From assembly GCF_000427685.1 (NCBI RefSeq), contig NZ_KE386573.1, positions 2,712,938 to 2,776,937 on the forward strand: a DNA stretch of 64,000 nucleotides. Direction: 5' to 3'. Position 1 is the stretch's first letter, and each line of letters begins with the position of its first letter. The position numbers were made by a program, and so were the translations under genes. The notes beneath the pieces were generated by a model. It searched no databases, was not told the DNA's origin, and saw nothing but the letters and a program-made list of their open reading frames with translations. Positions 13,212 to 14,350 of the stretch are shown in pieces. Origin of the DNA: Haloplanus natans DSM 17983 (GTDB lineage: Archaea; Halobacteriota; Halobacteria; Halobacteriales; Haloferacaceae).

Positions 13212-14051
13212 ATGAGCGCGGACGACAAGTATCCCGAAGAGAGCGGGCGGCGGCGGTTCGTCAAAGGCGTCGTCGGTGGCTCGGCGCTCGCGGGCGTGGG
13301 CGCCCTCGGGACGGTCACCGTCAACAGCGCGACCGCCTCGCCCGGGGCCGGCGGTGGGAGCACGCAGGCGTGGGCGATCAAGAACACCGGCGGCCCGGCG
13401 CCGCGCGGAATGCCCCAGATTCCCATCGAGATCGATTCGGAGGGATACCTCAAGGGCGTCTGGCCCACCGTCAAGACCGTCACGCAGGGCGGCCGGCAGG
13501 TCCAGATCGCCGAGATGGAGCTCGGCGGATCGACGTACTCCTCGGAGTGGTTCCAGTACTGCGGCGTCGAGGGGTACGCAGGCATCCAACCGGGCTACGA
13601 GAGCGACAACTACTTCCGCACCGGATCGAACCCCGCCTACGAGTGGCAGTCCCAGAGCAAGGAGGAAGGCGACCGCCTCCACGTCGACGACTTCAGCGAC
13701 TACGAGGAGTGGGGCAACGGCATCGGCACCGCGGGCACCGGCAAGCCCGCGACCGGTCGGTGGCGCTCCGAGGACGCCGAGGACATCGTTCCCATCCAGG
13801 TGCTCCGGAGCACGCGCATCGAGGAGGCGGCCCAAGGCGACGAGTGGCTTCAGGCCAGCACCTCCGAGGGCTTCATCGCGTGGCTCAACAAGTGCACCCA
13901 CTTCTGCTGTGTGCCGGGATACAAGCAGTCCGAAGACGCCGCGCGCTTCGGGAACGCCAACGGCGTCTACTGTCAGTGCCACCAGTCCATCTACGACCCG
14001 TTCAGCGTCGTCCAGACGCTGTTCATCGCGCGGCCGCGCCCCACTAACTGA
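13212..14051 (+). CDS. Rieske [2Fe-2S] protein, Tat-exported
   Basis: A 279-residue protein with twin-arginine signal RRRFVKGVVGGSALAGVGAL, then a periplasm-facing domain. Cluster box 1 is CTHFCCVPG and box 2 is YCQCHQSIYDP: two Cys and two His ligands plus the disulfide-forming cysteines. This is the quinol-oxidising electron-transfer subunit of bc-type complexes. No cytochrome b gene is next to it, so partners are elsewhere. The C-terminus (FSVVQTLFIARPRP) matches full-length relatives. Confidence 0.9.
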   Translation: MSADDKYPEESGRRRFVKGVVGGSALAGVGALGTVTVNSATASPGAGGGSTQAWAIKNTGGPAPRGMPQIPIEIDSEGYLKGVWPTVKTVTQGGRQVQIAEMELGGSTYSSEWFQYCGVEGYAGIQPGYESDNYFRTGSNPAYEWQSQSKEEGDRLHVDDFSDYEEWGNGIGTAGTGKPATGRWRSEDAEDIVPIQVLRSTRIEEAAQGDEWLQASTSEGFIAWLNKCTHFCCVPGYKQSEDAARFGNANGVYCQCHQSIYDPFSVVQTLFIARPRPTN

Positions 14052-14068: not shown

Positions 14069-14350
14069 CTACGCGCGCCCACCGCTCACCGGCGGGAACA
14101 GCGCGAGTTCGTCACCCGATTCCAGCGTCGTCTCCAGCCCCTCGGCCCCGTGGACGCTCTCGCCGTTCCGAAGCACGTTGATGTGGTCGGCCACGTTCCC
14201 CGCGTCGTCGAGGACGCGGTCACGGAGAGCGGGCCGCGCCACGAACAGTTCGTCGAGGGCGTCGCCGACCGTCGCGCCGGGTTCGGTGTCGACCCGGATC
14301 TCCCGGTCGCCGGCCACCTCAGCGAGGTCCGCGAACAACTTCCACTGCAT
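14069..14350 (-). CDS. samp1: SAMP1/MoaD-like small archaeal modifier protein
   Basis: A 93-residue beta-grasp protein beginning MQWKLFADLAEVAGDREIRV, very close to Haloferax SAMP1 as I remember it. It should act as a ubiquitin-like protein tag and/or sulfur carrier for molybdopterin after adenylation by an E1-like enzyme. The diglycine that must be C-terminal is present (FPPVSGG) but is followed by two extra residues, RA, before TAG. That tail would have to be removed before activation. Convergent with the Rieske gene, 17 bp apart. Confidence 0.85.
   Translation of the reverse strand: MQWKLFADLAEVAGDREIRVDTEPGATVGDALDELFVARPALRDRVLDDAGNVADHINVLRNGESVHGAEGLETTLESGDELALFPPVSGGRA

What the first reader, a model, noticed from the sequence alone, without database searches (positions are those of the whole stretch)
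14069..14350. SAMP1-like modifier whose diglycine is followed by Arg-Ala
The C-terminus reads PPVSGG-RA-stop. Ubiquitin-like proteins need a free terminal Gly-Gly for adenylation. Haloferax SAMP1, as I recall, ends at Gly-Gly. Either a protease trims two residues (a made-to-be-matured modifier, as in eukaryotic ubiquitin-like proteins), or this copy no longer works as a tag.
Basis: partly seen in the sequence, partly recalled or inferred. Interest (0 to 1): 0.55.

Follow-up and report, generated by a model that had tools for sequence, protein, structure and literature searches.

The report
Capped SAMP1, likely trimmed by desampylase
A salt-loving archaeon makes its ubiquitin-like tag SAMP1 with two extra residues after the active Gly-Gly end; many relatives carry different short caps, and in the genomes examined every capped SAMP1 sits in a genome that also has the protease known in a relative to cut right after that Gly-Gly.

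Summary
Window 14350..14069 (-) encodes a SAMP1 ortholog that reads FPPVSGG-RA-stop. It is no sequencing error: 10 of the 11 other genomes of the genus (Haloplanus) also have 1-5 residues after Gly-Gly. Across 392 genomes of the order, 282 carry the exact DELALFPPV core. All 282 keep Gly-Gly, and at least 59 (21 of 74 genera) have residues after it. Caps differ in sequence, are mostly under 10 residues, and came and went many times. The host has the whole toolkit: UbaA-type E1, MoaE, and the haloarchaeal desampylase (HvJAMM1 family). All 59 capped genomes have the desampylase; 43 SAMP1-bearing genomes lack it, and all 43 end exactly at Gly-Gly (Fisher 2e-5 per genome, 0.004 per genus, 0.011 stratified by family; a tree-based pair test was too weak to decide). 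Published work shows HvJAMM1 cuts a SAMP1 linear fusion precisely after Gly-Gly. Best reading: a capped precursor matured by desampylase, the caps probably being tolerated accidents of stop-codon loss rather than designed propeptides. Capped sulfur carriers and SAMP precursors are known elsewhere, so this is a new variant of a known kind. Mass spectrometry of the mature end is the missing test.

The parts
14078..14350 (-). SAMP1 ortholog, codons 1-91 through the Gly-Gly (beta-grasp ubiquitin-like / MoaD-type sulfur carrier)
   Evidence: NF041918 131 bits, ends at residue 91; PDB SAMP1 chains, E about 1e-29
14072..14077 (-). Cap: Arg-Ala codons (CGC GCG) after Gly-Gly; inferred cleavage point between Gly91 and Arg92
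   Evidence: Translation and codons; cleavage is inferred, not shown
14069..14071 (-). Stop codon TAG of the SAMP1 gene
13212..14051 (+). Convergent neighbour, Rieske-like iron-sulfur protein, ending 17 nt before the SAMP1 stop; in several congeners the two stop codons overlap (CTAA/TTAG)
   Evidence: ORF; Rieske_proteo 35 bits, below its cut-off of 97; overlap read from DNA (L092, L094, L097, L098)

Best explanation
This is a working SAMP1 (ubiquitin-like modifier and MoaD-type sulfur carrier) encoded as a capped precursor, SAMP1-GG-RA. The haloarchaeal desampylase, a JAMM metalloprotease that normally releases SAMP1 from its targets, cuts after Gly91 and removes Arg-Ala. The exposed Gly-Gly is then adenylated by UbaA and used for thiocarboxylation (molybdopterin synthase with MoaE) or for sampylation. 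The cap is probably not a designed propeptide. Because desampylase accepts many residues after Gly-Gly, loss of the stop codon costs little where the enzyme is present, so short unrelated caps arise and vanish repeatedly; each cap then makes SAMP1 dependent on the protease. Shown: cap, Gly-Gly retention, toolkit, co-occurrence. Shown by others in Haloferax: HvJAMM1 cuts a SAMP1 linear fusion exactly after Gly-Gly. Inferred: that cleavage happens to this cap in this organism.
For: (1) Gly-Gly is under strong constraint despite the caps: of 392 genomes, 282 have the DELALFPPV codons, 281 of them match with Gly-Gly, and the one exception, G025, also keeps Gly-Gly, with a tail of at least 70 residues. 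In 38 capped loci all four Gly codons are used at both positions, so the changes there are synonymous only. (2) Desampylase co-occurrence: 59 of 59 capped genomes against 180 of 223 not scored as capped; the 43 genomes without it all read GG-stop (29 visible, 12, 2). Local GC does not explain this. (3) The host has desampylase NF041370 at 192 bits (cut-off 130), a single strong ThiF/UbaA match (276 bits), and MoaE, found in 12 of 12 genus genomes. [quoted passage not shown] (5) Passages of PMC6043591: an archaeal JAMM trims Caldiarchaeum SAMP precursors.
Against: No protein data for this organism. The co-occurrence could partly reflect shared ancestry: on a SAMP1 tree only 4 supported independent pairs were available, 2-3 going the predicted way and 0 the other, which cannot reach significance. 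HvJAMM1 was tested on a protein fusion, not on a dipeptide cap. 180 desampylase-bearing genomes show no cap in these searches, so the protease at most permits caps. Another peptidase, or the second JAMM protein of the host, could do the trimming.
Confidence: 0.74

Rival explanations
1. Trimming happens, but by another peptidase (a carboxypeptidase, or the second JAMM protein at C7:1646519), and the link with the desampylase is coincidental.
For: A second JAMM-type protein is present (PF14464 46 bits). A two-residue cap is within reach of a carboxypeptidase (general knowledge).
Against: 59 of 59 capped genomes have the desampylase and none of the 43 genomes lacking it is capped. Caps in other genera reach 10-47 residues.
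Confidence: 0.12
2. The cap stays on and this SAMP1 is no longer activated; it is a decaying or repurposed copy.
For: A blocked Gly-Gly cannot be thiocarboxylated (established mechanism; stated as a prediction for Ubl-MoaE fusions in PMC4443979).
Against: Gly-Gly is kept in 282 of 282 genomes with the core, with synonymous variation only in the loci examined. In this host it is the SAMP1-family protein with the highest score, and MoaE and E1 are kept.
Confidence: 0.07
3. The cap is an adaptive propeptide that keeps SAMP1 inactive until a signal or a location is reached, as an activation switch.
For: Caps are far shorter than read-through would give (36 of 38 at most 9 residues against 7 of 52; per genus 18 of 21 against 4 of 35), so length is constrained. 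Many Halorubrum and Halalkalicoccus-group caps share similar four-residue forms ending in Arg or Gln.
Against: No conserved cap sequence between genera, repeated gain or loss (at least 23 changes on a 137-row tree), and one congener has no cap (L091). Short length also fits selection against long tails.
Confidence: 0.07

Closest known systems
Haloferax volcanii SAMP1 with HvJAMM1
   Same: Same family and E1/MoaE partners; HvJAMM1 cuts a SAMP1 linear fusion after Gly-Gly, in vivo and in vitro (passages of PMC4443979).
   Different: Haloferax SAMP1 ends at Gly-Gly in the solved chains; the fusion there was engineered, whereas here the cap is natural.
Caldiarchaeum subterraneum SAMP precursors with CsJAMM, and CsUb-pre with CsRpn11
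   Same: Archaeal Ubls made as precursors and trimmed by JAMM proteases (passages of PMC6043591).
   Different: A different archaeal lineage. Here the caps recur across haloarchaeal genera and can be set against the presence or absence of the protease.
Capped bacterial sulfur carriers: PtmS2 (GG-MV) and PtmS3 (GG-C) with JAMM PtmS1; QbsE with QbsD
   Same: MoaD/ThiS-type carriers with one or two residues after Gly-Gly, exposed by a protease (PtmS passages in PMC6006322; the QbsE tail is recalled, only QbsD is mentioned there).
   Different: Those serve natural-product pathways, PtmS1 being clustered with PtmS2; here it is the housekeeping SAMP1 and the desampylase is not adjacent.

Membership tests
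SAMP1 (NCBIfam NF041918) | Whole-protein profile score over the curated cut-off | tested here: met
   131.2 bits, cut-off 60
SAMP1 (NCBIfam NF041918) | Gly-Gly at the end of the beta-grasp domain | tested here: met
   Residues 90-91 align to the last two profile positions
SAMP1 (NCBIfam NF041918) | Gly-Gly as the encoded C-terminus | tested here: not met
   Followed by Arg-Ala; claimed only as a capped precursor of SAMP1
SAMP1 (NCBIfam NF041918) | UbaA-dependent conjugation or thiocarboxylation | not testable with these tools
   E1 and MoaE genes are present, activity unknown
JAMM-matured capped Ubl or sulfur carrier | Residues after Gly-Gly in the gene product | tested here: met
   RA here; at least 59 of 282 genomes with the core
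JAMM-matured capped Ubl or sulfur carrier | A JAMM protease in the same genome with the metal motif intact | tested here: met
   NF041370 192 bits; HSHP...SATD present in the translation, the motif itself being recalled
JAMM-matured capped Ubl or sulfur carrier | Cleavage after Gly-Gly demonstrated | not testable with these tools
   Shown by others for a Haloferax SAMP1 fusion only

The most novel reading that the evidence does not exclude
Desampylase has a second, constructive job: wherever it exists, SAMP1 stop codons drift, and in capped lineages the enzyme that removes SAMP1 from targets has become the obligatory activator of SAMP1, and through it of molybdenum-cofactor synthesis. This would be a neutral ratchet that has made an optional protease essential many separate times, a possible model for how eukaryotic Ubl precursors arose.
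Probability: 0.4. Interest if true: 0.62.

Novelty: new variant of a known kind. Interest (0 to 1): 0.5.

Why it matters
Why ubiquitin-like proteins are made as precursors is an open question. Here caps appear and vanish across close relatives, together with genomes that have or lack the protease, so the question becomes testable with allele swaps in a genetically tractable archaeon. It also warns that annotation or expression of haloarchaeal SAMP1 as ending at Gly-Gly is often wrong, and it suggests that desampylase may be needed for molybdenum-cofactor synthesis in capped species, although a SAMP1 encoded ending at Gly-Gly should not need it for this step.

Tried and rejected
Base-calling error: rejected, since 11 of 12 genus genomes are capped with differing DNA. 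Dead copy: disfavoured by Gly-Gly retention and kept partners. Random stop-codon read-through without constraint: rejected on length (36 of 38 against 7 of 52; per genus 18 of 21 against 4 of 35). GC content as the hidden cause of the desampylase link: medians 0.690, 0.686 and 0.703, no significant difference. Relatedness as the hidden cause: stratified by family, one-sided exact p = 0.011; tree-based independent pairs gave 4 usable pairs, undecided. Adjacent-gene explanation for the paralog P0003: its extra Ala comes from a GCATGA overlap with the next gene's start, a different cause from the SAMP1 cap. Literature on capped haloarchaeal SAMP1: six searches of the open library; no report of it was seen in the listings or in the passages read. 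Subscription papers, including the 2012 HvJAMM1 paper (not held), could not be checked.

Limits of the counts: the survey counts only genomes with exact DELALFPPV codons, so 110 of 392 genomes were left out. Caps whose first residue is Cys, Tyr or Trp were seen only through the truncated listing, so 59 is a lower bound and some of the 223 'not capped' genomes that have desampylase may be capped. Desampylase counted as present at E < 1e-10; 19 weaker matches counted as absent. Loci L009 and L010 were dropped as duplicates of L098 and L100 before the counts. In one search, 145 proteins were reduced to 137 rows, and 48 rows entered the smaller tree, after removal of identical proteins. GC control: 21 capped genera with one genome each, 18 genomes from desampylase-less groups, and 17 of the 38 other desampylase-bearing genera (those with coordinates in the listings). 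No structure was predicted.

Full report
What is there. The reverse-strand ORF 14350..14069 encodes 93 residues ending FPPVSGG-RA-stop. It is a SAMP1 ortholog by the curated NCBI profile (131 bits, cut-off 60), whose last position is the second Gly, and by similarity to the solved Haloferax SAMP1 chains, which align through Gly-Gly.

The cap is real and common. In the 12 genus genomes searched the residues after Gly-Gly are RA (twice, one being ours), RQ (twice), A, R, MR, TQ, TDRAR, RGATE and RVAE, and one genome has none. Among 90 distinct SAMP1 loci are capped and 52 end at Gly-Gly. Halorubrum often has four-residue caps such as SVGR and AVGR; Halalkalicoccus has SAPR (L069), and other members of the group code g34, which holds the same SAPR sequence, have SDRR, SGQR, SGRR and SGRQ.

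Survey of the order. In 392 genomes, 282 carry exact DELALFPPV codons and 281 of them match with Gly-Gly and a TRR within 27 bases. Two patterns that require a non-stop codon after Gly-Gly hit 16 and 40 genomes with no overlap. Two more caps beginning with Cys were seen (G315, G377), and G025, the one genome outside the 281, keeps Gly-Gly with a long tail. That makes at least 59 capped genomes in 21 of 74 genera (G025 belongs to a genus already counted). The 110 genomes without the exact core were not examined.

Gly-Gly is kept. All 282 genomes with the core retain Gly-Gly. At the two Gly codons of the 38 capped loci all four Gly codons occur, which is what purifying selection on a still-used Gly-Gly looks like and not what a dead tag would show.

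The protease link. The desampylase family NF041370 has a strong match in 279 of 392 genomes (E < 1e-10). Among genomes with the core, 59 of 59 capped and 180 of 223 others have it (Fisher p = 2.3e-5). Per genus it is 21 of 21 capped against 38 of 53 others (p = 0.004); stratified by family with genus as the unit, one-sided p = 0.011. The 43 genomes without it all read GG-stop: 29 in the listing, 12, and G184 and G284. In genus g61 the capped genome (G166) has the protease and the GG-stop genome (G112) lacks it. Local GC does not differ significantly between the groups. Against this, a SAMP1 protein tree gives only 4 supported independent pairs, with 2-3 in the predicted direction and none opposite, which cannot be significant.

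The host's toolkit. The genome has one strong ThiF/UbaA match (276 bits; the two other matches are below the cut-off), one MoaE, the desampylase (192 bits) with HSHP...SATD in its translation (the JAMM motif is recalled), and a second JAMM-type protein. MoaE is found in 12 of 12 genus genomes. The desampylase is similar in sequence to solved JAMM structures including JAMM1 (5lda, 5ld9).

Where caps come from. In several congeners the SAMP1 stop lies on the complement of the convergent Rieske-like gene's stop (CTAA/TTAG; L092, L094, L097, L098, read), and in Halorubrum the capped stop abuts a conserved downstream stretch that lies further away in some uncapped species. Caps are much shorter than stop-codon loss would give: 36 of 38 are at most 9 residues, whereas only 7 of 52 uncapped loci have a next in-frame stop that near (p = 1e-15); with one genome per group it is 18 of 21 against 4 of 35. 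So long tails are selected against or short ones are favoured, while sequence is free. The state changes at least 23 times on a 137-row SAMP1 tree built by the quick method from about 90 residues, so the number is rough.

Mechanism. [quoted passage not shown] Passages of PMC6043591 report CsJAMM cleaving Caldiarchaeum SAMP precursors. Passages of PMC6006322 describe capped bacterial sulfur carriers that need a protease, with a JAMM protease gene beside one of them. From these, the most likely route here is desampylase cutting Gly91-Arg92, then UbaA activation. That step is inferred for this organism.

Novelty. Capped Ubls and sulfur carriers trimmed by JAMM proteases are known. What I did not find in the open library is the recurrent, variable capping of haloarchaeal SAMP1 and its restriction to genomes with desampylase. 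I file it as a new variant of a known kind.

Noticed in passing
G000:C7:218854-219126 (L002:1492-1776, P0003): A second SAMP1-family protein (109.5 bits) ends VAGG-A-stop. The extra Ala arises from a GCATGA overlap with the start of the next gene; 10 of 12 genus copies have Ala or Thr there and 2 have GG-stop (GGATGA).
   Followed up: partly
G000:C7:866403-866666 (L003:1438-1782, P0004): A SAMP1-like protein just under the family cut-off (59.3 against 60 bits) has a 21-residue Arg-rich tail after its Gly-Gly.
   Followed up: no
G000:C7:384892-385140 (L004:1498-1761): A SAMP1-family protein (65.1 bits) ends MRGG-S, so all four SAMP1-like copies with Gly-Gly found in this genome have something after it.
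   Followed up: no
G000:C7:1523038-1523307 (L126:1384-1788): A MoaD-like protein ends FVYPFIFCC, with Cys-Cys where Gly-Gly would be expected.
   Followed up: no
G051:C100:7169-7225 and G076:C6:106340-106396: Two genomes of group g34 carry a second, AT-richer SAMP1 copy ending GG-SFSLRI and GG-LFSLRI, perhaps on a mobile element.
   Followed up: no
L014-L052 downstream of SAMP1 (Halorubrum): A conserved DNA stretch ATCGGTCGTTTCAAACG follows the capped SAMP1 stop in many Halorubrum, and lies further downstream in some uncapped ones; possibly a terminator or a promoter of the next gene.
   Followed up: no
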